Positions 418 to 56,344 of a DNA stretch of 64,000 bases are shown here, one piece after another (the first letter of the stretch is position 1; every line of letters starts with the position of its first letter). Where the stretch lies: assembly GCA_030141605.1 (NCBI GenBank), contig JAQGDQ010000071.1:351605-415604 (forward strand). Reading direction: 5' to 3'. This DNA comes from Tubiluchus corallicola. Lineage: Eukaryota; Priapulida; Priapulimorpha; Priapulimorphida; Tubiluchidae. The notes under the pieces were generated by a model. That model did not search any database. It saw only the letters and a list, made by a program, of their open reading frames with translations, and was not told where the DNA came from. The position numbers and the translations under genes are program-made.

Positions 418-6151
<5,734 letters not shown>

Positions 6152-17800: not shown

Positions 17801-20714
17801 GTTGTGTTACGTAAAACAAATTTTTCGTCATCATGTAGGATATGGTCTGGTTGTAGTTGTCGTGAGTCATACATTATGAATCGAAGTGTGAGAAGTAGGG
17901 TGCATGGATTTTGGCAGTGGAAGCCAATAGTTTCCGCCATTACGTGTGGTCAGTTAACCTGTACAATTAGCTAGACTCTAACTGTTCAATACCTCAGACA
18001 GACAAGACTCCAGCCTGAGTCAGACCCATATCTAGAACAGCAAGAGGCTGACCCAGTCCGATAAGTAGATCAAACCTAGACTGTGAAAAATCTAACCACG
18101 ACTACAGCCAACCTTATACTAGCCTGTTATATGATGCATCATTAAATAAGATTATATAATGATTGTTTCATAATCACGCAACAATTACTGCAATCTAACT
18201 TTTTCATAATGACGCAAAACTTGTTACACAAAGTAGCATTTTTCTTATATTATGTTACGTGTAGTGAAAAGAGTGTTGTCGTTAGTGTGCTAACCAAGGA
18301 TATTGATGCACAAATACGTGTAATATTATAGCTAATTCTATGCAACGTCATTGCTTATGTTCACTGTGAAGCTAGAATTAAATTTTTTTATTTCATTTAC
18401 AAGCGGAGCAAGTAAGGTTGACTCTGCCATGCTCAGAGATGCAGGATTGGAAAATTGCGAGCCGGATCCGGCCAGTTATAACTGTGACCCGGATGCTAGA
18501 TTTCCTACATTTGACGGTTCGTGTAACAATCTCGAACATCCAGACTGGGGCGCTGTCGGATCACACCTAGTCAGGTCTCAGGATGCTAACTACTGTGATG
18601 GAGGTGTGTAGAGCACTCACTTTATTATATGTCTTCTTCGTTTATTGTTAAAAAAATATTCGCAGGCTTCTCATTTTTGTTTAATGTTAATGTTATTCTA
18701 AGCGAACCTTAAGGATCGGGCGTTTGAACATGAGTTTGAAAAATGAAAAAAATTCTATATAAAATTAGGGTCTTAACCACCAATCTGCCAGTGAGTAGTC
18801 ATCATTTGTACAAGTTTTTATGAGTCATTTATTTCAAATGGAATGGTCCCAATTTGCTGGAATTGTTTCAACGTTGTAATTATTTAGCACGAGAGTGACT
18901 ATCCAAAACACATGAAAAATAGATTCAATACTACGGTTTTATGTATTTATTTTAGTCGCCTTCCTTGAAGCAATTCCAAAGGATCTAATAGCTAAACTTC
19001 GGAGTGTTATGTGTTAAGCCAGTAGTCAAGTAGTAGGTTAATCATAAAGTTAGCTGGCCACAGCTCCAGAATAAGCCAGCGAAGCCTGTTTTGTAATCTG
19101 TTCGTGATTTTTGAACCTGTAATTAACCGATAATTTACTAGCCTGGTGATATAAGTTACATGTTTTCTTTGAAACTTTCATTGGATTTTAAGGGTACTCT
19201 GTAGCCTATAACTGCTTTATGTACAAGCATGGTTCTTCGAAAATCAATATAATTTGCTGTAGGGATAATATTACCCTACTTTAACTGATTTGCAGGCGAT
19301 ATAGGTATGGTGGCTGCTAAAATGATTTTTGCTGTTCTTTCTTGAAGACAAGTTATATCATTAAATGCTGCTTATTCCTACAGTTCCCCTTTGTGTATAA
19401 CAGTAACTCAAATGTGGCTGTACAATTGAATTGTATAATTGAATGCAAACTAATATAAGATCTAGTTCTTCTCAGCACGCCAATCTTTTGTGTAATTTAG
19501 TAATTTTGTTAAATCCTGGCGCAACGCTAGGTGTTGATCAGTTGCGACACCAAGAAGTTTTCTGCGTTTGTACTTCTTCTATGGTTTCATCGGTTGCATT
19601 TTCAATAACGATATCTTTGTTCTTCTTGTTGCTGCATGCAAATTTTTGCGCTCTACACATTATCATACTTTTGATTTTGCTAATATTTAATTTCGTCTTG
19701 TTATGGCTCGTCCATTTACTAATGTTTTTGGTGTCGGATTGTAGTTTTTATTCGACAATTTTCAAGTCTGCATTACCCGCATGCATTTCTGTTGAACATG
19801 CTTTTAAACTATTTGGCAAGTCGTTTATCTGTAGCAGGAAAATTGTAGGCCCAGCATAGATCCTTGTGGTATACCAGTTTTGATAATTTTAATTGTTCAG
19901 AATCTTGTCTTATAAAGTTGGACGCACTGGGATCTATTCGACAAATAGGGGCGGAACCAATTTAAGGCTGTCCTCCGTATGCCATAACATTTTAGTTTTC
20001 TTGTTACAATCTCATGATCAAGGATATCAAACGCTTCCTTTAGGTCTAAGCAGAGAACACCTGTAAATCTTCTGTCATCTATATTATTCAGCATTTTACC
20101 TGTGAGTGATATCAGTGCAGTTTCACAGTTAAGGTTTTCTCTAAAGCCAGACTGGTTTTCTGTTAAAAGACGGTGTGTTCAATATAACTGATTAAGCTAA
20201 ACTGCAACTAATCTTTCTTACCGTATCTAATACCTCACTTACAATAGGAAGGATGGAAATTGGGAGTAATTTTTAAGATCGTCCCGGTCATCAATTTTGT
20301 GCACGCCTCCGTTTTTAGTCACCAACAAAAAAGTTATTTCAAAACTGTAAAGTATTATTGATAACTTTATTTAGTTATAGTGAACGTAGCCTTTTCAACT
20401 TTTCCTTGACCTATTTGTTGTTCACTACTAACAAAAAGTCTTATCACTTTCTTGTTCAAACGTCAGGACAGTTTAACCTATTAAAATCGCGTACGTGAGA
20501 ATTTTATCTACAATTTTTCTTATAGAGGGTTCCCTCCGATGTTCCGTCAATGGTGGAGATTTGCCAAACGCAAGATCGATTAGCACCATTATTCACGAAT
20601 CACTGATGACCCCAGAGTTTGAGACAAGCGCGACACTGATGCTGATGCAATGGGGACAATTCTTAGATCACGATATTGTTTTAACTCCGTCAACGCAATT
20701 GCCATTTGATGTAG
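14898..20714 (+). CDS. Animal haem peroxidase (peroxidasin/thyroid-peroxidase type), 5' half only
   Basis: Five exons join in frame: 14898-14911 (Met to the first bases of codon 5), 16340-16482, 17364-17472, 18404-18603 and 20526-20714, giving 218 residues. The second exon supplies a signal peptide (RKFLRHVLVVLVLCVITCSA), so the protein is secreted or in the secretory lumen. Exon 4 has DGSCNNLEHPDWG, the classic start of the peroxidase domain. Exon 5 has LPNARSIS and MQWGQFLDHDIVLTP, with the distal haem-pocket His and the haem-linked Asp. Exon 5 ends at a good donor (G|GTAAGT, phase 1). No later peroxidase exon (catalytic Arg, proximal His) appears before the palindrome at 21192 or after it. 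The gene is therefore truncated, rearranged, or misjoined in assembly. An antisense LINE sits in intron 4. Confidence 0.85.
16560..17100. other. Peroxidase intron with small inverted repeat
   Basis: Part of intron 2. AGCTCAGGTGTGCACGTGAC (16920-16939) is mirrored by CTCACATGCACACCTGAG (about 16996-17013), a short imperfect inverted repeat that may be a MITE remnant. No coding sequence is seen. Confidence 0.45.
19440..20330 (-). mobile_element. Decayed LINE (reverse transcriptase) in peroxidase intron 4
   Basis: Read on the minus strand, 20094-19897 gives FTGVLCLDLKEAFDILDHEI then GIRRTALNWFRPYLSNRSQC, the LINE reverse-transcriptase A/B region. Lower coordinates give INDLPNSLKACSTEM and a KWTSHNKTKLNISK-like stretch. 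The order is correct for one element, with frameshifts and stops between the blocks. It lies opposite to the host gene. Confidence 0.85.
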
Positions 20715-21191
20715 GTAAGTGTGACGACCTTAAATGTTCGTATGTCCATGCGACTGTATGCCTGCAATTTGCAGTACAACATATGTCCACGAGGAGGAGG
20801 AGTGGCCGAAGTTGAGCAATATCTAGATTGGACAGTGAAAGATAGATAAACGCCGGGGCGGGGGGTCATTATTATGCCCCATTGCAAACGTTAATAAAAC
20901 ACTACTGCTGGTTTCGAAGATTTTCCTTGTTAATGAGCTAGGTTCCCGTCACGCCACAACGATCAACATTAAATAGATCCTGCCGTAGAGTGTCGAATTC
21001 TGGTTTGCCAAATCATGATTGGTCGATTGGTGCATACCAAATTGTATTAAAGAAATTTTCGTACATGTTGGTAGTGAAGGAACGGGGAACAAGCACCGTT
21101 TGGTTGAGAAAAAAGCAAATTTCATTTGGGACTTATTAGTAATAAATTGTTTCCGATAGTCAGTATGTTGCCCCCACTCCAAATAAATAAA
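20715..21191. other. Stretch between the last peroxidase exon and the palindrome
   Basis: Nothing recognisable. The expected next peroxidase exon is not here. Confidence 0.5.
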
Positions 21192-21463
21192 GAAAATCCG
21201 CGAAAACCCCTAAAAAAGTGTGAAAACCCGTGTGAAAGTGCGCACGTGACCGAAATCGACGAAAAAGCGCGAAAAACAAAGAAAAACGAAGAAAAGGCGT
21301 GTGAAACGAGGTAAAAATTTTGCAGTTTTTCCCTCCCGCATGGCTTCATTTGGATCGAATGACCTTGAACTCTATAGGTCACGACCAAAGTTCATTGACC
21401 CCTGTCTCTGGATGGCTTCTTTTTTTGACACCCCATTTTAAACCGCGCAAAACCGCGGAAAAA

Positions 21464-21536
21464 AGGAAAGTGTGTGAAAGCGCATGAAAGCGTGTGAAAG
21501 CGTGTGAAAGCGTGTGAAAGTGTGTGAAACGAGGTG
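21464..21536. repeat. Short tandem repeat in the left arm
   Basis: About seven units of a roughly 10-bp GTGTGAAAGC motif. The mirror block on the right arm is at about 25399-25470. Confidence 0.85.
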
Positions 21537-21811
21537 AAAAAGTGCCTCAAACGAAGAAAAGGAGAAGTGGAGTTCCCGCTCGAGTGACTAATTAGTGCTA
21601 ATTGGCGCTAATTGGCGAGCCCCCGCCACCCCTCCGGCCGCGTGCAAACGTCCGTCCCGGGTCGGGGACACCCCCCTGCAACCCACCCTCCGTCACGTGG
21701 AATCGTCCATTGCAGGCAATGAGGGAAATCTTCCCCCCCCACTCGGGTGCAGTGCCGGCCCTTTCATGACCACCGGGTGCCCCTTCGCGACCACTTCTCT
21801 CGCGGGTTTAG

Positions 21812-21850
<39 letters not shown>
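21812..21850. repeat. (TG)n run in the left arm
   Basis: Longer than its mirror (CA)n at 25074-25096, so the arms differ here by repeat length. Confidence 0.9.
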
Positions 21851-21851
<1 letters not shown>

Positions 21852-22049
21852 AGATTTATTTCAAACGCCAAAGTTCGATAAATGCATTTTCACAAATCTT
21901 TTTTATTGATGGATTACAAAAAATTTTTTTACATTTTTTATGCAAAATACATACGTGCTAAAACTAGATTATTATTATTATGGTGACGTGATAGTTCTAC
22001 ATTTTACGTTTTTTCGCAAATTACACAAATTACGCAAATTACAGTAAAA

Positions 22050-22640
22050 CTACACTAATGACGACGAGTGAGTACATGGATTGTCGTCGTCGTCGTCGAT
22101 GTGATACAGACAAACGTTATTGTTGTTAAAAACGAATTCGTTAAATTTGCGGAAAACGCGAGAGAAATCCTCGACCTTTGTCCCGCCCATCATTATTATG
22201 CTTCCGGTGTGAAAAATGTTCAGAGTAATTTGCTCGCATTTGCAAGTTAGTTTGGGAAATAGTTCCACTTCGTAAAACACTTCTCTAAATGAATGCGTCG
22301 AAGGACGAACGAGTTCTTCGTACAGTGCACCCAGTTTCAATCTGCAGCGAATTTTGGCTCTGGCGGTGATGGTGCGAAGTGCGATCCCGTCGGCGGGCGT
22401 CAGTCCGAGACCTTTCGAGAGTTCTTCGATCGCATTGCGTAGTACTTTTTCCTCCGAAAAACCGTTGGCCACCACGGAGCCGGAGGCAAAAATCATCAGC
22501 GTCCCGCCCAGTCGCTTTAGCAGAACCATTTGCGGTTTTCTTTCGTAGCGTCTTCCGCCCGTTCTCCGCCGGAGTTCGTTCAGATCGAAGCGCTGCGAGA
22601 ACGAAGCCGTGGCGACGATGTTGACCGTTTGGACTGACAC
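22050..22640 (-). CDS. TATA-binding-protein-like protein, left-arm copy
   Basis: Mirror copy of the right-arm gene at 24276-24866; see that entry for motifs. About 196 residues from the first recognisable TBP residues to the stop. The frame is open upstream but no ATG lies in it before the first TBP strand, so the start is unresolved and coordinates mark the homologous region. Differences from the other copy include Val for Leu after KPQM, Leu for Ile in GIAL, and Arg for His in EDFSR. A mirrored AATAAA lies at 21902-21907. Confidence 0.75.
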   Translation of the reverse strand: MSVQTVNIVATASFSQRFDLNELRRRTGGRRYERKPQMVLLKRLGGTLMIFASGSVVANGFSEEKVLRNAIEELSKGLGLTPADGIALRTITARAKIRCRLKLGALYEELVRPSTHSFREVFYEVELFPKLTCKCEQITLNIFHTGSIIMMGGTKVEDFSRVFRKFNEFVFNNNNVCLYHIDDDDDNPCTHSSSLV

Positions 22641-23092
22641 GTTAGAACGTAGTTGGCAATCGTTTCGGACGCCCGAACCGCTCTGCCTCGTCCGTTGCTC
22701 TGCCAACGTATGGCGGGCGGCGGGTGCTCGCTTTCCAGATCCTCTACGCGTATGACCACGCGATTTTTGGGGAGATGTTTTTTGACGAAATTGTACATCT
22801 CTGCTCCCTTGACGTAGGTGATCCTGCCTCTGGTGGTCTGTCGTAGAATGTTTTCCAATTCTGCGTACTCGATCATTCCCTCCTCCCACGAGATGCCGTG
22901 TATGTGTCTGATTAGGTAGTTGTAGGTGGATCGCTTGTGCTGGGGAACACGATTCCAGGGGTGGGGCGGTTTGAAGGTGTAGTTGTGATATATGCCGGTC
23001 TCTATTTCGCGAATTACCAAATTTTTGACCAGGTATTCTTCTTTTCCGCACTGGAAGGCATCTACGGTGAGAACTATGCTCGATTCAGACAT
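22580..23092 (-). CDS. 170-residue protein, nuclease-like unnamed family, left-arm copy
   Basis: Mirror of 23824-24336. It starts MSESSIVLTVDAFQCG and keeps the motifs FKPPHPWNR, HGISWEEG and ITYVKGAEMY. It differs from the other copy by Asn for Asp after AEMY and Glu for Asp in DLESE. Its ATG lies within the end of the basic-protein frame and its own end overlaps the TBP-like frame. Confidence 0.75.
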   Translation of the reverse strand: MSESSIVLTVDAFQCGKEEYLVKNLVIREIETGIYHNYTFKPPHPWNRVPQHKRSTYNYLIRHIHGISWEEGMIEYAELENILRQTTRGRITYVKGAEMYNFVKKHLPKNRVVIRVEDLESEHPPPAIRWQSNGRGRAVRASETIANYVLTCQSKRSTSSPRLRSRSASI

Positions 23093-23315
23093 CTGTGACG
23101 ATGGGGGGTCCTTCTACGCCGTCGGCAACGAGTTTTCCTTCGATGACGATTTGCTTGTGATTGTTCACAAATTCCAGAGACTTGATTTTTTCGAAGGTGT
23201 ATTTTTTTATGACCTTGTTGGGGGCACTCTTGCGTGCGTTGGCGCGCTTGCCGCCCCGCGTCCCCGCTTGTTGTTGTTGCTTGCGAGGAACGGTGGTTAG
23301 AGGTTGTTTGAAATC
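23085..23315 (-). CDS. Basic protein, left-arm copy extending into the centre
   Basis: The frame runs from the centre through the arm and ends TDV at 23087-23085. It has a QQQQ and Gly/Arg/Lys-rich stretch (GTRGGKRANARKSAPNK), then IKKYTFEKIKSLEFVNNHKQ, and an acidic-neutral tail. At 23316-23318 a CAG preceded by a pyrimidine run (TTGTTCTTCTTCTCTTG) looks like a 3' splice site that would place the first codon of the exon at GAT (23315). No ATG starts the frame nearby, so an upstream exon is likely. The product is unknown; the basic segment suggests nucleic-acid binding. Confidence 0.5.
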   Translation of the reverse strand, partial: DFKQPLTTVPRKQQQQAGTRGGKRANARKSAPNKVIKKYTFEKIKSLEFVNNHKQIVIEGKLVADGVEGPPIVTDV

Positions 23316-23624
23316 CTGCAAGAGAAGAAGAACAATAGTTATAGTATTGTTGTTCGCTAACGACAACTAGGCATTTTTGATGAGCCATTCTTTCAGATTT
23401 CTAGGTTTTTTGGGGGCAGTGGGGGTGAGCACCATCGGCGGCGATGGAGGGGGCGTCGCGGAAATTACGAGTTTGTCTTCTTCTTTATCATCATCTTTCT
23501 CCTCTTCCTCCTCCTCCTCTCGAAAGATGTCCATTCGTGTCCCTCTCTCGCGTCTGCTTTTACACGGAGGGGCGGAGGTGCCGACGTCCGTGTCTGGCAG
23601 ACTTCTTTCCGTCCAGTTTGTCCA
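23292..23624. other. Unique centre of the palindrome
   Basis: A 333-bp single-copy spacer between the arms. Genes on both arms point away from it, so it is the natural place for a bidirectional promoter. It also carries an acidic open frame on the minus strand and an acceptor-like site for the left-arm basic gene. Confidence 0.75.
23367..23534 (-). CDS. 55-residue acidic ORF in the palindrome centre
   Basis: Starts MDIFREEEEEEEKDDDKEED and ends PKKPRNLKEWLIKNA. The frame is open further upstream into the right arm (antisense), so the ATG at 23534 is only the likeliest start. It has a strongly acidic N-terminus, a proline-rich middle and a basic tail. It could be a small regulator or the C-terminal exon of a lost larger gene. 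It is present once, unlike the arm genes. Confidence 0.4.
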   Translation of the reverse strand: MDIFREEEEEEEKDDDKEEDKLVISATPPPSPPMVLTPTAPKKPRNLKEWLIKNA

Positions 23625-23831
23625 GTTCCTCGCAAGCAACAACAACAAGCGGGGACGCGGGGCGGCAAGCGCGCCAACGCACGCAAGAGTGCCCCCAACA
23701 AGGTCATAAAAAAATACACCTTCGAAAAAATCAAGTCTCTGGAATTTGTGAACAATCACAAGCAAATCGTCATCGAAGGAAAACTCGTTGCCGACGGCGT
23801 AGAAGGACCCCCCATCGTCACAGATGTCTGA
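23625..23831 (+). pseudogene. Basic protein, right-arm copy lacking its 5' part
   Basis: The arm boundary falls inside this frame, so only about 68 codons remain (VPRKQQQQAGTR to TDV). The portion before the boundary is different sequence with no matching start. It ends TGA at 23829-23831, overlapping the next ATG (23824). Confidence 0.55.
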
Positions 23832-24336
23832 ATCGAGCATAGTTCTCACCGTAGATGCCTTCCAGTGCGGAAAAGAAGAATACCTGGTCAAAAATTTGGT
23901 AATTCGCGAAATAGAGACCGGCATATATCACAACTACACCTTCAAACCGCCCCACCCCTGGAATCGTGTTCCCCAGCACAAGCGATCCACCTACAACTAC
24001 CTAATCAGACACATACACGGCATCTCGTGGGAGGAGGGAATGATCGAGTACGCAGAATTGGAAAACATTCTACGACAGACCACCAGAGGCAGGATCACCT
24101 ACGTCAAGGGAGCAGAGATGTACGATTTCGTCAAAAAACATCTCCCCAAAAATCGCGTGGTCATACGCGTAGAGGATCTGGAAAGCGACCACCCGCCGCC
24201 CGCCATACGTTGGCAGAGCAACGGACGAGGCAGAGCGGTTCGGGCGTCCGAAACGATTGCCAACTATGTTCTAACGTGTCAGTCCAAACGGTCAACATCG
24301 TCGCCACGGCTTCGTTCTCGCAGCGCTTCGATCTGA
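23824..24336 (+). CDS. 170-residue protein, nuclease-like unnamed family, right-arm copy
   Basis: A complete ATG-to-stop frame. The motif order is LTVDAFQCG (10-17 region), an acidic-hydrophobic strand (YLVKNLVIREIETG), FKPPHPWNR, YLIRHIHGISWEEG, ELENILRQTT and ITYVKGAEMYDFVKKHL. From memory this layout resembles short uncharacterised ORFs common in invertebrate genomes and mobile or viral elements, and the opening strand with an Asp recalls RNase H/DEDD-exonuclease folds. I cannot confirm a catalytic set, so function is inference. The start is fixed by similarity of the copies. The ATG has a weak context (C at -3, T at +4) and sits inside the end of the basic-protein frame. Its last 20 codons overlap the TBP-like frame, which is -1 relative to it. 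Confidence 0.75.
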   Translation: MSESSIVLTVDAFQCGKEEYLVKNLVIREIETGIYHNYTFKPPHPWNRVPQHKRSTYNYLIRHIHGISWEEGMIEYAELENILRQTTRGRITYVKGAEMYDFVKKHLPKNRVVIRVEDLESDHPPPAIRWQSNGRGRAVRASETIANYVLTCQSKRSTSSPRLRSRSASI

Positions 24337-24866
24337 ACGAACTCCGGCGGAGAACGGGCGGAAGACGCTACGAAAGAAAACCGCAAATGCTTCTGCTAAA
24401 GCGACTGGGCGGGACGCTGATGATTTTTGCCTCCGGCTCCGTGGTGGCCAACGGTTTTTCGGAGGAAAAAGTACTACGCAATGCGATCGAAGAACTCTCG
24501 AAAGGTCTCGGACTGACGCCCGCCGACGGGATCGCAATTCGCACCATCACCGCCAGAGCCAAAATTCGCTGCAGATTGAAACTGGGTGCACTGTACGAAG
24601 AACTCGTTCGTCCTTCGACGCATTCTTTTAGAGAAGTGTTTTACGAAGTGGAACTATTTCCCAAACTAACTTGCAAATGCGAGCAAATTACTCTGAACAT
24701 TTTTCACACCGGAAGCATAATAATGATGGGCGGGACAAAGGTCGAGGATTTCTCTCACGTTTTCCGCAAATTTAACGAATTCGTTTTTAACAACAATAAC
24801 GTTTGTCTGTATCACATCGACGACGACGACGACAATCCATGTACTCGCTCGTCGTCATTAGTGTAG
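24276..24866 (+). CDS. TATA-binding-protein-like protein, right-arm copy
   Basis: The two halves of the TBP saddle are visible. Repeat 1 has TVNIVATASFSQRFDLNEL, LMIFASGSVVANGFSEE and a helix to LSKGLGL. Repeat 2 has FYEVELFPKLTC, LNIFHTGSIIMMGGTKVED and VFRKFNEFVF. The pattern F-x-S-G-x-x-V-x-x-G and E-x-E-L-F-P is diagnostic of TBP. Of the four DNA-kinking phenylalanines, three positions are Phe (IFASG, LFP, IFHTG); the first lies near KPQM and is not Phe. The size (about 196 residues) fits the TBP core of about 180 with an Asp-rich tail (HIDDDDDN). The protein is far from host TBP, as in viral TBP homologues. No in-frame ATG precedes the domain, so coordinates start at the first TBP-like codons; a -1 frameshift from the 170-residue frame, splicing or a non-AUG start is needed. 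Poly(A) signal at 25015-25020. Confidence 0.78.
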   Translation: MSVQTVNIVATASFSQRFDLNELRRRTGGRRYERKPQMLLLKRLGGTLMIFASGSVVANGFSEEKVLRNAIEELSKGLGLTPADGIAIRTITARAKIRCRLKLGALYEELVRPSTHSFREVFYEVELFPKLTCKCEQITLNIFHTGSIIMMGGTKVEDFSHVFRKFNEFVFNNNNVCLYHIDDDDDNPCTRSSSLV

Positions 24867-25014
24867 TTTTACTGTAATTTGCATAATTTGTGTAATTTGC
24901 GAAAAAAACGTAAAATGTAGAACTATCACGTCACCATAATAATAATAATAATCTAGTTTTAGCACGTATGTATTTTGCATAAAAAAATGTAAAAAAAATT
25001 TTTTGTAATCCATC

Positions 25015-25020
25015 AATAAA
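25015..25020 (+). terminator. Poly(A) signal after the right-arm TBP-like gene
   Basis: AATAAA about 150 bp after the TBP-like stop. It is mirrored at 21902-21907 on the minus strand. Confidence 0.6.
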
Positions 25021-25073
25021 AAAGATTTGTGAAAATGCATTTATCGAACTTTGGCGTTTGAAATAAATCTCCA

Positions 25074-25096
25074 CACACACACACACACACACACAT
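25074..25096. repeat. (CA)n run in the right arm
   Basis: Mirror of the longer TG run at 21812-21850. Confidence 0.9.
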
Positions 25097-25398
25097 CTAA
25101 ACCCGCGAGAGAAGTGGTCGCGGAAAAGGGAGGGCACCCGAGAGAGAGAAGTGGTCGCGGAAAAGGGCCGGCACTGCGCGAGTGGGGGGGGGGAAGATTT
25201 CCCTCATTGCCTGCAATGGACGATTCCACGTGACGGAGGGGTGGGTTGCAGGGGGGGTGTCCCCGACCCCCGGGACGGACGTTTGCACGCGGCGGAGGGG
25301 TGGCAGGGGCTCGCCAATTAGCGCCAATTAGCACTAATTAGTCCTCGGCGGGAACTCCACTTCTCCCTTTTTCTTCGTTTGAGGCGCTTTTTACCTCG

Positions 25399-25470
25399 TT
25401 TCACACACTTTCACACGCTTTCGCGCACTTTCACACACTTTCACGCGCTTTCACACACTTTCACATGCTT
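25399..25470. repeat. Short tandem repeat in the right arm
   Basis: Repeats of about 10 bp, TTTCACACGC/TTTCGCGCAC type, mirror of 21464-21536. Confidence 0.85.
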
Positions 25471-25538
25471 TCGCGCGGTTTTGCGCGGTTTAAAATGGGG
25501 TGTCAAAAAAAGAAGCCATCCAGGGGTCAATGAACTTT

Positions 25539-25565
25539 GGTCACGTGACCTAGAGTTCAAGGTCA
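25539..25565. promoter_or_regulatory. CACGTG palindrome and nuclear-receptor-like half-site in the right arm
   Basis: GGTCACGTGACC (25539-25550) is a 12-bp perfect palindrome around an E-box. TCAAGGTCA (25557-25565) matches an extended nuclear-receptor half-site. The left arm keeps TGACCTTGA but has a degraded version of the E-box palindrome (GGTCACGACC). Function is unproven. Confidence 0.4.
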
Positions 25566-25733
25566 TTCGATCCAAATGAAGCCATGCGGGAGGGAAAAAC
25601 TGCAAAATTTTTACCTCGTTTCACACGCCTTTTCTTCGTTTTTCTTTGTTTTTCGCGCTTTTTCGTCGATTTCGGTCACGTGCGCACTTTCACACGGGTT
25701 TTCACACTTTTTTAGGGGTTTTCGCGGATTTTC

Positions 25734-26282
25734 GCACTTTTTTAGGGGTGTTTTTCCCCACCCCCCCGGGCAGCCAAAGGGGGGGTGGGGAAATCGGCCA
25801 GAGGCAAAACATCTATACTACTGAGGCCGAAATACCTGGGAAAGTTAAAGTTGTCCAAAAGTCCTGTAAGACCTTCACGACCTGGTAGAACCAGTACTTG
25901 ACAATAATTATTGAAATTATCTCTTTTACTGCATTTGTCACAGACTGGCAATGTTTAAAGCATGTGACGCAAATTGTGGCCTTCAACTATAGGTGACAGT
26001 AGGAAATTGTAATAAAACCCATCGACCTGTTTTTGTGACTTGATTATAGCTTTTTAATATAAGGCTTAGTTCTAAAAATCCTAACGTTGATTGGGATAAT
26101 ATGTACAAAACATCCAGGTTACAGAATTCTTGAGATTCGAACACCAAACTATCACTGTCCGTTTGTTTTGGATTTTTTTTTGTAAAAAATAAACCAAAAC
26201 AGGTACACCAGGGGAAAGTAATTTTTGTTATTATAATGGTTATTCTCGCGGTGATTTCCAAATAGTTGTTTTCTTTTTATAG
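25734..26282. other. Stretch between palindrome and first RhoGEF exon
   Basis: Begins with C-rich and G-rich runs (25756-25790). An open stretch at about 25803-25886 reads KTSILLRPKYLGKLKLSKSP and could be an exon, but its possible donor is out of phase with the next exon, so I do not call it. Confidence 0.4.
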
Positions 26283-40385
<14,103 letters not shown>

Positions 40386-50900: not shown

Positions 50901-53900
50901 TTATTTTTGATGAAAATAATTGGTACTAATAACGCTATTTAAAAGTTGAATTATCAGTGAATGATAAATTATTATGTAGAAGATAACCGCCCTGCAGGTC
51001 AAGTGACTAACCTCAAAATTGTCCTTGAAATCTATCATCTACTACCATTAATCCTTGCAAAGCGCCTTGTGTAAAAAACATCTCTGGTTATTTGTGCTCA
51101 AAGAGAAAAAGCTTCTCATAATATTCTTGATTTCTAAATGCAGGTTTAGTGATTATTTACCAATGATGACTTATCACCTTAATGGAATATGGAACAAACA
51201 CGCTGGTCATGGAAGTCCTTTGCATCCTCACTCCTACGATGTGGACAAAACTGCGAATATTGTAAGTGAAGAGGTCGCCTTTGAAATATCTTTGTTTTTA
51301 GTAATTTCAGTTAAGTGTAAGACAACTTGGAAAATCACACACAAGCAAGGGCAGCATTTTTGTGTCATGTGTGTGAAAGGGATAAATTATTGGAAAATCA
51401 CGGAAGCACTTTTGAGACTAATAGCTATGAAGATGCGGTATGATCGTTTTCCTTAGATAACCTAGTAATCTTCCATGCCATATAGTGTTCCTTGGTTTTT
51501 AGGGTACTTGGATAACCTAATAATCTTCCATGCCATGTAGTGTTCCTTAGTTTTTAGTGTACTTGGATAACCTAATAATCTTCCATGCCATGTAGTGTTC
51601 CTTAGTTTTTAGTGTACTTAGATAATCTAATAATCTTCCATGCCATATAATGTTCCTTAGTTTTTAGTGTACTTAGATAACCTAATAATCTTCCATGCCA
51701 TGTAGTGTTCCTTAGTTTTTAGGGTACTTAAATAACCTAGTAATCTTTCATGTCATATAGCGTTCCTTAGTTTTTAGTGTACTTAGATAATCTAATAATC
51801 TTCCATGCCATGTAATGTTCCTTAGTTTTTAGTGTACTTAGATAATCTAATAATCTTCCATGCCATGTAATGTTCCTTAGTTTTTAGCGTACTTAGATAA
51901 TCTAATAATCTTCCATGCCATATAATGTTCTTTAGTTTTTAGTGTACTTAGATAATCTAATAATCTTCCATGCCATGTAGTGTTCCTTAGTTTTTAGTGT
52001 ACTTAGATAATCTATTAATCTTCCATGCCATGTAGTGTTGCTTAGTTTTTAGTGTACTTAGATAATCTAATAATCTTCCATGCCATGTAGTGTTCCTTAG
52101 TTTTTAGTGTATTTAGATAATCTAATAATCTTCCATGCCATATAACGTTCCTTAGTTTTTAGTGTACTTAGACAATCTAATAATCTTCCATGCCATATAG
52201 CGTTCCTTAGTTTTTAGTGTACTTAGATAATTTAATAATCTTCCATGCCATATAGCGTTCCTTAGTTTTTAGTGTACTTAGATAACCTAAATCCTATTAT
52301 CGTTGCTTTTTTTTAAGGAATTCATCGTCCAATATTGGATAAACCATGGAACGGATCCAAAGAAATTGCTGCTGGGAATTCCTCTTTTTGGACAGACTTA
52401 CACTCTCCAAGACCCATCTGACCACATGTTAAATGCACCTATTGTAGGAAGTGGCAAGGCTGGACACATGTATCAACAGGAAGGAATGATGCCGTACTAC
52501 GAGGTTTGTGCCCACAAAACTTTGCTTGAGCTTATTCTTATTAAGATTTTCGGCTTCTTGTGGATTGGTAAACACCAATCTTATTACTGCTTAAGTGATA
52601 GATTTAGCCAACTGAACAACTGATAATGCTTCTTGCGAATATTTTTTGAATGACTTACAGATCTACGTCTTCACTCATAATAAATGAATAAATTACGACA
52701 AAATTTGCAGATTATAAAGATTCGCAAATCTGTTTCGGAAAATTCACAAACATTTTAATGGTACCAATGTGCGGCATTTGTCACATTTGCAAATAAATAA
52801 AAATTGTGGTTTATTTCTATTAATTTTAATGACTTGCATTACTTAAATCTTTTGTAGGTGTGTTCTGAAGTGATGCCAAGCTATGAAAGCTTTTGGGTTG
52901 AAGATCAGCTTGTTCCATTTGCTTACAAAAATGACCAATGGATTGGCTACGAGGATTCAAGGAGTATTAGTGAAAAGGTAACAATCCTTTGCAGTATATT
53001 TGGACAAGTTCTAGAACTTCCATCACCAAACTTTCACTAATTTTTTTGTACGTATTGTTGACCACAGTTAGCATTCAACTGGTTACTGATCACCAACTTT
53101 TGTAATTTTTGCAACGCATTTGCATGTTATCAACGGGCCTCATTTTTCCCTGACTGACAATAGGGTTCGTCTAACTAGTTTTTGTTTGTAGGTCAAGTAT
53201 GTGATCGACAATCACCTTGGAGGCGTTATGGTCTGGGCATTAGGTTTTGATGATTTTAAAGGTCATTGTAATCATGGAAGGAATCCTCTGTTGACCACAA
53301 TAAAAACAGAATTGCTGGAAGTGACACAGGTGACCTATGTAATCCACACAAAATCTTCAAATGTTTTACAGCAGTTGCCGCACAAGTATGAAACGGGTGC
53401 AGTAGAACCACATTATGCAACATCACATCACGGTGAGACGTACAGGCGTCATACTGTGCAACATCGGCGACACTACGTACAACATGTATCCCATCAGCAA
53501 GAAGGACAACACCCTGTTCATGGATATGATGAGCACCATGCCTACCATGGGCACAGTCGCAGTCGCAGAGTGGAGTCATCATATTCACGGCACGGGAATT
53601 ATCACGATGCGTATCCTCATCAAACACAAGGAAGTTACATACCATATCAAGAACACGAAATGATTCCCCACGAAACGTACAATTACGAAACATATCCACA
53701 CAGAGATGCATATGAAGTCTACCCTAGCAACAGCTATCCTTATGACGCTCACAATTATGTAATATATCTGCCGGAGCAGTATGACGTGCACCCTCATCAA
53801 ACACATGAGAATTACGGTGCATATTCAGCACATGGACAGTATGATGATTTCGAAGTACATCCTCGTGAAAGTTCTGAAATATATCCAGTAAACGAGCCGC

Positions 53901-56344
53901 ATGCGTACCCTTATGAAAAAAGCAATTATTACGATACTTACCCTGGGTCTGAACTCTATGAAGTTCATCCTTATGAAAGTTATGGTTATGAAACACACCC
54001 TGATGAACTGTATGCTGAACATGGACATTATGAAGGGCATCCTCGTGAAACATACCCTGAACATGGACATTATGAAGGGCATCCTCGTGAAACATATCCT
54101 GAACATGGACATTATGAAGGGCATCCTCGTGAAACATACCCTGAACATGGACATTATGAAGTGCATCCTCGTGAAACATACCCTGAACATGGACATTATG
54201 AAGTGCATCCTCGTGAAACATACCCTGAACATGGACATTATGAAGTGCATCCTCATGAAACATACCCTGAACATGGACATTATGAAGTGCATCCTCGTGA
54301 AACATACCCTGAACATGGACACTATGAAGTGCATCCTCATGAAACATACCCTGAACATGGACATTATGAAGTGCATCCTCGTGAAACATACCCTGAACAT
54401 GGACATTATGAAGTGCTTCCTCATGAAACATACCCTGAACATGGACACTATGAAGTGCTTCCTCATGAAACATACCCTGAACATGGACACTATGAAGTGC
54501 ATCCTCATGAAACATACCCTGAACATGGACACTATGAAGTGCATCCTCGTGAAACATACCCTGAACATGGACATTATGAAGTGCATCCTCGTGAAACATA
54601 CCCTGAACATGGACATTATGAAGTGCATCCTCATGAAACATACCCTGAACATGGACATTATGAAGTGCATCCTCATGAAACATACCCTGAACATGGACAT
54701 TATGAAGTGCTTCCTCATGAAACATACCCTGAACATGGACACTATGAAGTGCATCCTCATGAAGCGTACCCTGAACATGGACACTATGAAGTGCTTCCTC
54801 ATGAAACATACCCTGAACATGGACACTATGAAGTGCATCCTCATGAAACATACCCTGAACATGGACACTATGAAGTGCATCCTCGTGAAACATACCCTGA
54901 ACATGGACATTATGAAGTGCATCCTCGTGAAACATACCCTGAACATGGACATTATGAAGTGCATCCTCATGAAACATACCCTGAACATGGACATTATGAA
55001 GTGCATCCTCATGAAACATACCCTGAACATGGACATTATGAAGTGCTTCCTCATGAAACATACCCTGAACATGGACACTATGAAGTGCATCCTCATGAAA
55101 CATACCCTGAACATGGACATTATGAAGTGCTTCCTCATGAAACATACCCTGAACATGGACACTATGAAGTGCATCCTCATGAAACATACCCTGAACATGG
55201 ACACTATGAAGTGCATCCTCATGAAACGTACCCTGAACATGGACACTATGAAGTTCATCCTAATGAATTATATCCTCATGAAGAGTATCCTGAACATGGA
55301 CACTATGAAGTGCATCCTCATGAAACGTATCCTGAACATGGACACTATGAAGTGCATCCTCATGAAGAGTATCCTGAACATGGACACTATGAAGTGCATC
55401 CTCATGAAACGTATCCTGAACATGGACACTATGAAGTGCATCCTCATGAAACGTACCCTGAACATGGACACTATGAAGTGCATCCTCATGAAACGTATCC
55501 TGAATATGGACACTATGAAGTGCATCCTCATGAAACGTACCCTGAATATGGACACTATGAAGTGCATCCTCATGAAACGTACCCTGAACATGGACACTAT
55601 GAAGTGCATCCTCATGAAACGTACCCTGAACATGGACACTATGAAGTGCATCCTCATGAAACGTACCCTGAACATGGACACTATGAAGTGCATCCTCATG
55701 AAACGTACCCTGAACATGGACACTATGAAGTGCATCCTCATGAAACATACCCTGAACATGGACACGATGCATATGAAAGCTATCCAGGCCACTATGATAC
55801 GTATCCATCACATGTTTCCACAGTTGGTATTCCATTTCCACACCATACAGCTTATTCTTATGAAGGGTATCCTACAAATCAATCCTATGAACAATATCCA
55901 CGTAATACTTACAACGATTATGAATTACCTGGTACTGTTGGACACGAGACATATCCCAGTAATACTCATGGGGGCGAAAGCCTTGGCCCAGTAGTTGCCC
56001 AGGAAGAGCAGAGGCCATATAATCCAGAATTGGAGGAAACAAAACTTTCGGATTCCGGTTCATCTGCTTCTGGAAGAAACGGCGCTGTGGGAATGGCTAC
56101 AGAAAGTACGCAATGTGAGGTGAAAGGACCAGGTCCCTCTTGCTCCGGACATTCGCACATGGTAATGGCAAATCCAATAAACTGTCGCAAGTACTATCTA
56201 TGTCTGTGGCAGAACACACCCAATGAAATGCGTGTTCCAATGAACTGCCCGGAGGGAACAGTCTTTCATCCATTCAAATACATGTGTGATGATAAGGAAA
56301 ATGTTGATACATCCGTAATATGTAAATGTGGAGAAGAGTCGTGA
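46717..56344 (+). CDS. Secreted GH18 chitinase-like protein with His-rich 14-mer repeats and a chitin-binding domain
   Basis: Eight exons join in frame: 46717-46786, 48120-48311, 50250-50512, 50755-50879, 51144-51261, 52318-52503, 52858-52977 and 53192-56344, giving 1408 residues. Residues 1-20 form a signal peptide (GVCLVLVLLAGLSS). The GH18 domain (about 40-380) shows YVRFCFYPG, CTHIVFGYA, LLAVGGW, FDGLNVDWEFPG (145-156), MTYHLNG, LLLGIPLFGQTY and GVMVWALGFDDF. The general acid Glu153 is present, but DxDxE reads NxDxE and the usual MTYD reads MTYH. Next is a Tyr/His-rich linker, then about 42 copies of YPEHGHYEVHPHET-type 14-mers (about 632-1216), and an eight-Cys peritrophin-A/CBM14 domain (about 1332-1408). 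It probably sits in a chitin-based extracellular material where His could bind metal. An in-frame ATG at 46690 is an alternative start, though TTTTTGCAG before 46716 looks like a splice acceptor. Confidence 0.93.
47730..47945 (+). mobile_element. LINE/SINE 3' end with (CTTG)n tail in chitinase intron 1
   Basis: A 3'-end-like segment with GGGTGGCTGACCTCGATGAC and a later GATAAACTAATAAA, ending in about ten CTTG/CTTA units, as at the tails of L2/CR1-type elements. Confidence 0.55.
49319..49680. mobile_element. LINE-tail-like segments in chitinase intron 2
   Basis: A repeated AATTC (49316-49331) next to TTTTTTATTTGGCTGATTTG resembles a minus-strand LINE tail. About 49540-49680 resembles a plus-strand LINE 3' end (GCTGAAATAAATAGTACAAT). 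No coding remnant was found. Confidence 0.35.
51452..52291. repeat. 56-bp minisatellite, about 15 units, in a chitinase intron
   Basis: Units share TAATCTTCCATGCCAT and GTTCCTTAGTTTTTAGTGTA. It lies between the fifth and sixth exons and nearly fills the intron. Confidence 0.95.
54012..55764 (+). repeat. 42-bp coding repeat array (about 42 units) in the chitinase-like gene
   Basis: Units encode YPEHGHYEVHPHET with variants HPRET, LPHET and GHPRET. A pattern of variants repeats with a period of eight units (about 336 bp) in the middle of the array, so larger blocks were duplicated. The end contains one odd unit (NELYPHEEYPEHGHY) and two EYGHY variants. Confidence 0.97.

What the first reader, a model, noticed from the sequence alone, without database searches (positions are those of the whole stretch)
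21192..25733. A 4.5-kb palindrome carrying two outward-facing copies of a TBP-like gene cassette
Two 2.1-kb arms in head-to-head orientation each carry a basic protein, a nuclease-like 170-residue protein and a TATA-binding-protein-like protein, packed with overlaps, in GC-richer DNA than the host. TBP homologues are known from some large DNA viruses; I know of no small mobile element or virus end built as a TBP-encoding inverted repeat. It could be the terminal repeats of a larger DNA virus or Maverick-like element with its middle deleted, or a self-contained fold-back element. A mobile element with its own TBP could redirect host transcription to itself.
Basis: partly seen in the sequence, partly recalled or inferred. 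Interest (0 to 1): 0.88.

Follow-up and report, generated by a model that had tools for sequence, protein, structure and literature searches.

The report
TBP-carrying Polinton end, misassembled as palindrome
The "palindrome" is the end of a virus-like transposon (a Polinton, or Maverick) that carries its own gene for a TATA-binding protein, an unusual cargo; the double-armed shape as drawn in this window is very probably an assembly join, although other copies suggest that fold-back forms of this end may also exist.

Summary
The repeat is in the letters: arms 21192-23291 and 23625-25733, 95.9% identical. The TATA-binding-protein (TBP) gene is well supported: Pfam TBP E=1.4e-21; all 44 PDB fold matches below 1e-3 are TBP chains or fusions. 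The parent looks like a Polinton/Maverick. Copy C1626 has the same end (another terminus subtype) and cassette, then runs on to at least 12.6 kb with an ATPase-like ORF, an integrase (rve E=1.8e-17), capsid-like ORFs, a weak adenovirus-type protease match and PolB-like sequence. C2073 carries PolB and the other end. Those ends share only about 84 nt, so the 2.1-kb arms are not the element's own terminal repeats.

The palindrome cannot be trusted as one locus. In 13 contigs this arm lies exactly 342,517 bases from the contig end; the 11 read match the window exactly from 22950 to at least 27045. The junction at 23625 lies in a 9-nt inverted microhomology; three other copies have different fold-back junctions with 8-10 nt overlaps. 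Most likely: a Polinton lineage with its own TBP for host RNA polymerase II, plus snap-back derivatives and assembly false joins.

The parts
21192..23291 (-). left arm: left end of a Polinton copy (outermost ~90 nt missing), cassette read towards the terminus
   Evidence: terminus comparison
23625..25822 (+). right arm up to the terminus ...CTATACTACT| (5'-AGTAGTATAG read inwards); part of the sequence shared by 13 contigs
22053..22676 (-). TBP frame, left copy (conserved domain from about 22637 down; no ATG upstream in frame)
   Evidence: Pfam PF00352 E=1.4e-21, 2 stretches; PDB TBPs
24240..24863 (+). TBP frame, right copy (98% identical protein)
22583..23092 (-). 170-aa ORF, no family recognised, left copy
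23824..24336 (+). 170-aa ORF, right copy
23088..23366 (-). basic ORF, left copy (no ATG); overlaps the start of the 170-aa ORF (ATGTCTGA)
23625..23831 (+). basic ORF, right copy, cut at its 5' side by the fold-back junction
23370..23624 (-). unique centre: tail of a ~330-aa ORF that is long in the parent copies (L024 3988-5001, L028 3986-4984)
23625..23633 (.). fold-back junction: 9-nt microhomology GTTCCTCGC; parent copy C1626 matches to 23633 and then goes on differently
22912..22950 (.). most likely zone of the false join between the left locus and the shared piece
21466..21529 (.). 10-bp direct repeats GAAAGCGTGT x6.4 in the outer non-coding part (mirror copy 25399-25465)
25753..25793 (.). 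terminal hairpin: perfect 15-bp stem, 11-nt loop
   Evidence: the region 25660-25840 folds with z -3.6

Best explanation
The cassette is the left end of a Polinton/Maverick (endogenous adintovirus-like element) in this genome, an animal's to judge by its genes. The lineage has acquired a TBP gene, read outwards together with a basic ORF and an unknown 170-aa ORF. SHOWN: a copy with this end also carries an integrase and further ORFs in Polinton order; a PolB-bearing end has the same terminal letters; the TBP family is clear. SHOWN for the window: its right half recurs in 13 contigs at the same distance from the contig end, so the palindrome as a locus is very probably an assembly join; the shared piece itself contains a fold-back junction in a 9-nt inverted microhomology. 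INFERRED: such junctions arise when a displaced 3' end of linear, protein-primed DNA snaps back on itself, primes on 8-10 matching bases and copies the end again, as in snap-back defective genomes of other linear DNA viruses. INFERRED: the TBP binds element promoters and recruits host TFIIB and RNA polymerase II. It keeps three of the four residues that line up with TBP's intercalating phenylalanines, and the segment YEVELFPKL lines up with the TFIIB-contacting stretch (residue roles recalled). It may be made by a -1 frameshift, a splice or a non-AUG start, since no ATG precedes it.
For: copies, shared piece; Polinton genes; termini; junctions; TBP; no in-register stop in the TBP stretch in 11 of 12 copies compared.
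Against: No contig read holds both ends of one full-length parent; the PolB end rests on one contig (C2073), and in C1972 terminal letters lie inside the PolB region. No 6-bp target duplication in the two both-ended derivatives compared (C47, C229). Protease and ATPase matches lie under the Pfam cut-offs, and the capsid-like ORFs matched no Pfam family above cut-off. In-vitro or assembly chimeras could also give microhomology junctions. C47's two termini are of different subtypes, which one simple snap-back would not give.
Confidence: 0.78

Rival explanations
1. The whole palindrome, junction included, is an assembly or library artefact (fold-back chimera); the genome holds only single TBP ends of normal Polintons. 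(This overlaps with the best explanation, which already takes the join as false; it differs on the junctions.)
For: Same right half at the same distance from the contig end in 13 contigs (11 read); N gaps beside the shared piece in 5 of the 11; the innermost 400 nt of the arms have 0 differences.
Against: Other junctions (C47, C229, C197) differ from each other and lie in stretches without N; arm-to-arm identities inside them are 94, 96 and 89% in the best piece, not the near-100% of a read fold-back.
Confidence: 0.35
2. The palindrome at 21192-25822 is a real 4.6-kb non-autonomous element (a snap-back derivative) inserted as a unit beside the peroxidase gene.
For: Arms differ by 9 substitutions in 1283 coding bases plus repeat-length changes, as separately ageing copies would.
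Against: At most one of 13 such joins can be right (inference); the window differs from 10 of 11 other contigs at 22949 and is identical to all 11 from 22950 on; no target duplication seen; left end truncated.
Confidence: 0.08
3. The arms are long terminal inverted repeats of a larger virus with its middle deleted.
For: Termini outward, genes inside the repeats; the parent is a Maverick-type element.
Against: The PolB end in C2073 matches the TBP end over only ~84 nt and has no match to the TBP cassette.
Confidence: 0.06
4. The TBP is a recent copy of the host's own TBP gene.
For: It is a TBP.
Against: Only 18-27% identity to solved TBPs in the fold alignments; its closest relative found is an unnamed 145-aa protein at 58%.
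Confidence: 0.03

Closest known systems
Polinton/Maverick elements (endogenous adintoviruses)
   Same: rve integrase with chromodomain, PolB of the PF03175 type, weak adenovirus-type protease match, packaging-ATPase-like and capsid-like ORFs, ends reading AG...CT (the expected gene set is recalled)
   Different: carries a TBP gene at one end; TATA and TBP occur 0 times in the two papers on Polintons and related viruses that I searched for those words (PMC11071308, PMC10120064)
Virus-encoded TBPs (asfarvirus B263R, nimavirus wsv303, Heterosigma akashiwo virus TBP, herpesvirus TBP mimics)
   Same: divergent TBP in a DNA virus; of the 5 viral fold matches below 1e-3, the two with names are an algal-virus TBP and an asfa-like B263R homologue; three kept phenylalanines are also described for B263R (passages of PMC5825884); wsv303 seen in a passage of PMC10871703; the herpesvirus mimic in a listing (PMC12529657)
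   Different: those sit in large or herpes-type viruses; this one is in a small integrase-bearing element
Endogenous elements with TBP genes in the alga Cymbomonas
   Same: TBP genes in integrated viral elements (passage of PMC10675990)
   Different: [quoted passage not shown] tied to mirusvirus-like capsids, not to the Polinton-like viruses of that genome
Snap-back (self-complementary) AAV genomes
   Same: one end of a linear DNA duplicated head to head, with an unpaired loop in the asymmetric kind (passages of PMC8235507)
   Different: different virus; here known only from an assembly that contains false joins

Membership tests
Polinton/Maverick | retroviral-type (rve) integrase | tested here: met
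   PF00665 E=1.8e-17 plus chromo E=8.4e-6 in copy C1626
Polinton/Maverick | family B DNA polymerase | tested here: met
   PF03175 E=2.5e-10 in C2073; 948 nt of that ORF are 99% the C1626 sequence. The part of the ORF present in C1626 alone gave no Pfam hit
Polinton/Maverick | adenovirus-type cysteine protease | tested here: inconclusive
   PF00770 E=0.0043 and 0.0071, below the curated cut-off
Polinton/Maverick | packaging ATPase | tested here: inconclusive
   P-loop ORF; best AAA/FtsK hits E=0.0056 and 0.0097, under cut-off; no PHROGs hit
Polinton/Maverick | double jelly-roll major capsid and penton proteins | tested here: inconclusive
   ORFs in the expected place and size; no family above cut-off, none for the major-capsid-like ORF in PHROGs; likeness recalled only
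Polinton/Maverick | terminal inverted repeats beginning AG... | tested here: met
   AGTAGTATAG at the TBP end and at the PolB end of C2073, ~84 nt shared
Polinton/Maverick | 6-bp target-site duplication | tested here: inconclusive
   absent in the 2 both-ended derivatives compared (C47, C229); no full-length copy with both ends held
Polinton/Maverick | length about 15-20 kb | tested here: inconclusive
   C1626 runs at least 12.6 kb to its contig end
TATA-binding protein | two TBP repeats | tested here: met
   PF00352, 2 stretches, E=1.4e-21
TATA-binding protein | saddle fold | tested here: met
   secondary-structure order fits; 44 of 44 PDB hits below 1e-3 are TBP chains or fusions, though the model is poor (pLDDT 36, TM-score to the query's length 0.30-0.36)
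TATA-binding protein | binds and bends TATA-like DNA | not testable with these tools
   three of the four aligned phenylalanine positions kept (alignment; roles recalled)
Snap-back derivative | inverted duplication of one end with short microhomology at the junction | tested here: met
   9 nt window, 9 nt C47, 10 nt C229, 8 nt C197. A stricter rule with a long exact anchor found only C197 of these three
Snap-back derivative | formed in the living genome and not in library or assembly | not testable with these tools
   no reads held

The most novel reading that the evidence does not exclude
A Polinton lineage of animals carries its own TBP, making a virus-specific pre-initiation factor that places host RNA polymerase II on Polinton promoters, and its TBP end is repeatedly amplified as head-to-head snap-back satellites during protein-primed replication.
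Probability: 0.3. Interest if true: 0.75.

Novelty: new variant of a known kind. Interest (0 to 1): 0.55.

Why it matters
The viral TBPs met in this work belong to large or herpes-type DNA viruses. One in a small integrating Polinton would show that control over promoter choice has also been taken up by the compact virus-transposon group that is considered ancestral to most eukaryotic double-stranded DNA viruses (abstract of PMC7805220, listing), and would let viral TBP function be tested in a small system. The palindrome itself is a warning: repeats of such elements can glue one long piece to a dozen contigs.

Tried and rejected
Splice model: I first took the acidic 'MDIF' frame in the centre (23370-23534) as a first exon joined to the basic ORF. 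The parent copies show it to be the tail of a ~330-aa ORF, so I dropped the claim; a splice is not excluded.

Viral contig scans with TBP, the 170-aa ORF, P0001, P0002 and two alignments found no relative. The basic ORF hit only one contig whose long ORF looks like a phage tape-measure protein (name recalled), rejected as a low-complexity match. An iteron pattern found nothing, nor did the genome-contig scan or Rfam over 20-27 kb.

-1 slippery heptamers: none of those listed lies in the overlap just before the TBP domain in the 170-aa ORF's frame; one, AAATTTG at 23024, lies early in that ORF; none taken as convincing.

Target duplication at the window's own ends: none; the 6-nt CCCCAC shared near the two flanks is what chance gives (estimate by hand).

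Junction overlaps: the rule needed a 21-base exact anchor and gave 8 nt for C197, no inverted match for C47, a gap of 8 for C229, and a meaningless 36 for the window (its query held the arm itself); with a looser rule gave 9, 10 and 8 nt for C47, C229 and C197.

Paper searches: no title or abstract start listed reports a TBP in a Polinton. In one search, 15 papers held at least 3 of Polinton/adintovirus/Maverick/TBP and 14 were listed; TBP occurred 0 times in 13 of these and 3 times in PMC7786948, whose text I did not read. One search listed three papers holding both 'TATA-binding protein' and 'Polinton' (PMC10132985, PMC10675990, PMC7786948); I saw passages of PMC10675990 only. The original adintovirus paper is not held, so 'not in print' is not claimed.
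Full report
WHAT IS IN THE WINDOW. Two inverted arms, 21192-23291 and 23625-25733, flank a 333-nt unique centre. They align at 95.9% over 2135 columns. In 22009-23291 against 23625-24907 there are 9 substitutions and no indel in 1283 bases; over the whole arm there are 44 substitutions in 2076 aligned columns and 16 gap events, many of them in short repeats. The first 400 nt from the centre have no difference. Each arm reads outwards through a basic ORF, a 170-aa ORF and a TBP frame. A stop-free frame as long as the TBP one (344 codons) occurred in 0 of 300 dinucleotide shuffles, while 38 of 300 reached 177 codons, so the 170-aa ORF is not remarkable by length alone; the second codon position is lowest in GC in all four frames checked, as in coding DNA.

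THE TBP. Pfam TBP E=1.4e-21 over two repeats; the PDB sequence search finds TBPs, best E=1.6e-9. The AlphaFold model is of low confidence (pLDDT 36), but its order of strands and helices fits the TBP saddle; the 44 PDB matches below 1e-3 are all TBP chains or fusions. Of 5 viral structures below 1e-3 the two with names are a Heterosigma akashiwo virus TBP and an asfa-like B263R homologue. In the alignment three of the four positions that line up with TBP's intercalating phenylalanines are phenylalanine, the first being glutamine; YEVELFPKL lines up with YEPELFPGL, the TFIIB-contacting stretch (residue roles recalled). At the sensitivity of the tool, only two relatives were found among 5.8 billion proteins: P0001 (58% identity, 145 aa) and P0002 (30%, E=7e-6), on contigs without a name. 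No ATG precedes the domain in frame.

THE PARENT. Searching the window's own assembly (343.5 Mb, 2344 contigs) with the coding arm gave 46 matches, 40 of 68 candidates being scored. Copies C1626 and C2033 contain the end, the cassette (with a deletion in C2033) and the centre, and continue beyond 23624 with sequence 95% alike for about 1308 nt. C1626 then carries, in order, an ATPase-like ORF, an unknown ORF, an integrase with rve E=1.8e-17 and a chromodomain, penton-like, pVI-like and major-capsid-like ORFs, an adenovirus-type protease (PF00770 E=0.007, below cut-off) and part of a PolB-like ORF at the contig end, at least 12.6 kb from its terminus (the capsid and PolB names there rest on recalled likeness). 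C2073 holds the PolB end: PF03175 E=2.5e-10 and the terminus CTATACTACT at 5815. This is the gene set of a Polinton/Maverick (recalled). The PolB end of C2073 shares only ~84 nt with the TBP end, so the element's own terminal repeats appear short and the TBP cassette single-copy. Against this, C1972 has terminal letters inside the PolB region, a rearrangement I did not follow.

THE TRUE TERMINI. The last letters ...CATCTATACTACT or ...CATCTATCCTACT were found in 25 of the 30 loci L010-L039 and in the window; outside the shared piece they are followed by different sequence from locus to locus. In the window the right terminus is 25822; the left arm begins at 21192 without the outermost ~90 nt. 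A perfect 15-bp hairpin lies at 25753-25793, just inside the terminus.

WHY THE PALINDROME IS NOT TRUSTWORTHY HERE. For ten contigs (C1850, which holds the window, C2271, C1781, C2066, C2, C2200, C2159, C14, C2228, C2185) the distance from this arm's coding end (window 24907) to the contig end is exactly 342,517 bases, and in three more (C457, C628, C2254) the mirrored arm starts at 342,518. Sequence was compared in 11 contigs besides the window (C2228 was not): all match the window letter for letter from 22950 into the flank, to at least 27045-27891 where the fetched stretches stop; the rest of the 342.5 kb was not read. In 10 of the 11 the first difference leftwards is at 22949; C2271 agrees to 22826. 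Left arms and left flanks differ. Five of the 11 stretches have an N gap directly beside the piece that starts at 22912. Thirteen undiverged copies of such a piece are not credible biology; it has been joined to many contigs that end in a Polinton. At most one join can be true.

FOLD-BACK FORMS. The shared piece itself turns back at 23625. The parent copy C1626 matches the window to 23633 and then diverges, so the junction sits in a 9-nt inverted microhomology, GTTCCTCGC. Three other contigs show different inverted duplications of the same end: C47 (23314 to 21918), C229 (23464 to 21764) and C197 (23478 to 22115), with overlaps of 9, 10 and 8 nt (the stricter rule recovered only C197). C354, with its twin in C2254, has arms to 22957 and 22824 around a piece of parent interior. 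Arm-to-arm identity in the best aligned piece is 94.4 (C47), 95.9 (C229), 89.2 (C197) and 97.7% (C354). This is what snap-back priming on displaced linear strands would leave, as described for AAV (passages of PMC8235507). Against it: in-vitro or assembly chimeras can look alike, C47's termini are of two subtypes, and no target duplication was seen in C47 or C229.

CONSTRAINT. Of 12 copies compared with the window's left arm, 11 have no in-register stop in the TBP stretch; the diverged C387 has one. C2 has a frame-shifting insertion, and six copies have gaps that I did not sort by frame. Over the 11 close copies, TBP substitutions fall 27/24/47 on codon positions 1/2/3 (summed; shared changes counted repeatedly), a mild third-position excess consistent with past selection followed by decay. 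Between the window's own two arms the coding changes are mostly amino-acid changes, as in dead copies.

FUNCTION. Most likely the TBP acts as the element's own initiation factor for host RNA polymerase II. This is inferred from the family and the kept residues; nothing here tests it.

NOVELTY. None of the listings of my ten paper searches reports a TBP in a Polinton (searches named under Tried and rejected), but the founding adintovirus paper could not be read and most listed papers were not opened. I call it a new variant of a known kind.

Noticed in passing
window 22950-64000 (C1850 from about 374,550 to its end): This stretch appears to be part of a piece attached to 13 contigs; what lies right of the palindrome in this window may belong to a different locus from what lies left of it (read to 27045-27891 only).
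   Followed up: partly
L041 4177-4339 (C1972): Terminal-repeat letters, inverted, stand inside the PolB region of this copy in place of PolB sequence: another rearranged or fold-back copy.
   Followed up: no
window 26979-27308 and 29529-29988: Two inverted, 86-93% alike stretches with CAGTGGTTCCC...GGAACCACTG ends, looking like hAT-type miniature elements or the two ends of one (type recalled).
   Followed up: no
window 20477-20812; 37195-37566; 52291-52620; 55949-56341: Host gene exons: animal haem peroxidase, a PH domain (just below cut-off), a GH18 chitinase and a CBM_14 domain behind a long HETYPEHGHYEVHP repeat.
   Followed up: no
window 21271-21617 and mirror: The outer non-coding part is built of several 10-bp direct repeats (GAAAGCGTGT, CTAATTGGCG, AAACCGCGCA), perhaps replication or promoter iterons.
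   Followed up: no
L028 3041-3985: In copy C2033 an internal deletion leaves basic, 170-aa-ORF and TBP pieces in one open frame.
   Followed up: no
C1443 11023-11913; C1846 200537-201443; C284 7323-7813: PolB-like DNA at 83, 75 and 72% identity: other Polinton subfamilies in the same genome; whether they carry a TBP is unknown.
   Followed up: no
P0002: A second divergent TBP-like protein (182 aa, 7.8-kb unnamed contig) sharing IFHTG and YEVELFP with this one; possibly another viral TBP.
   Followed up: partly
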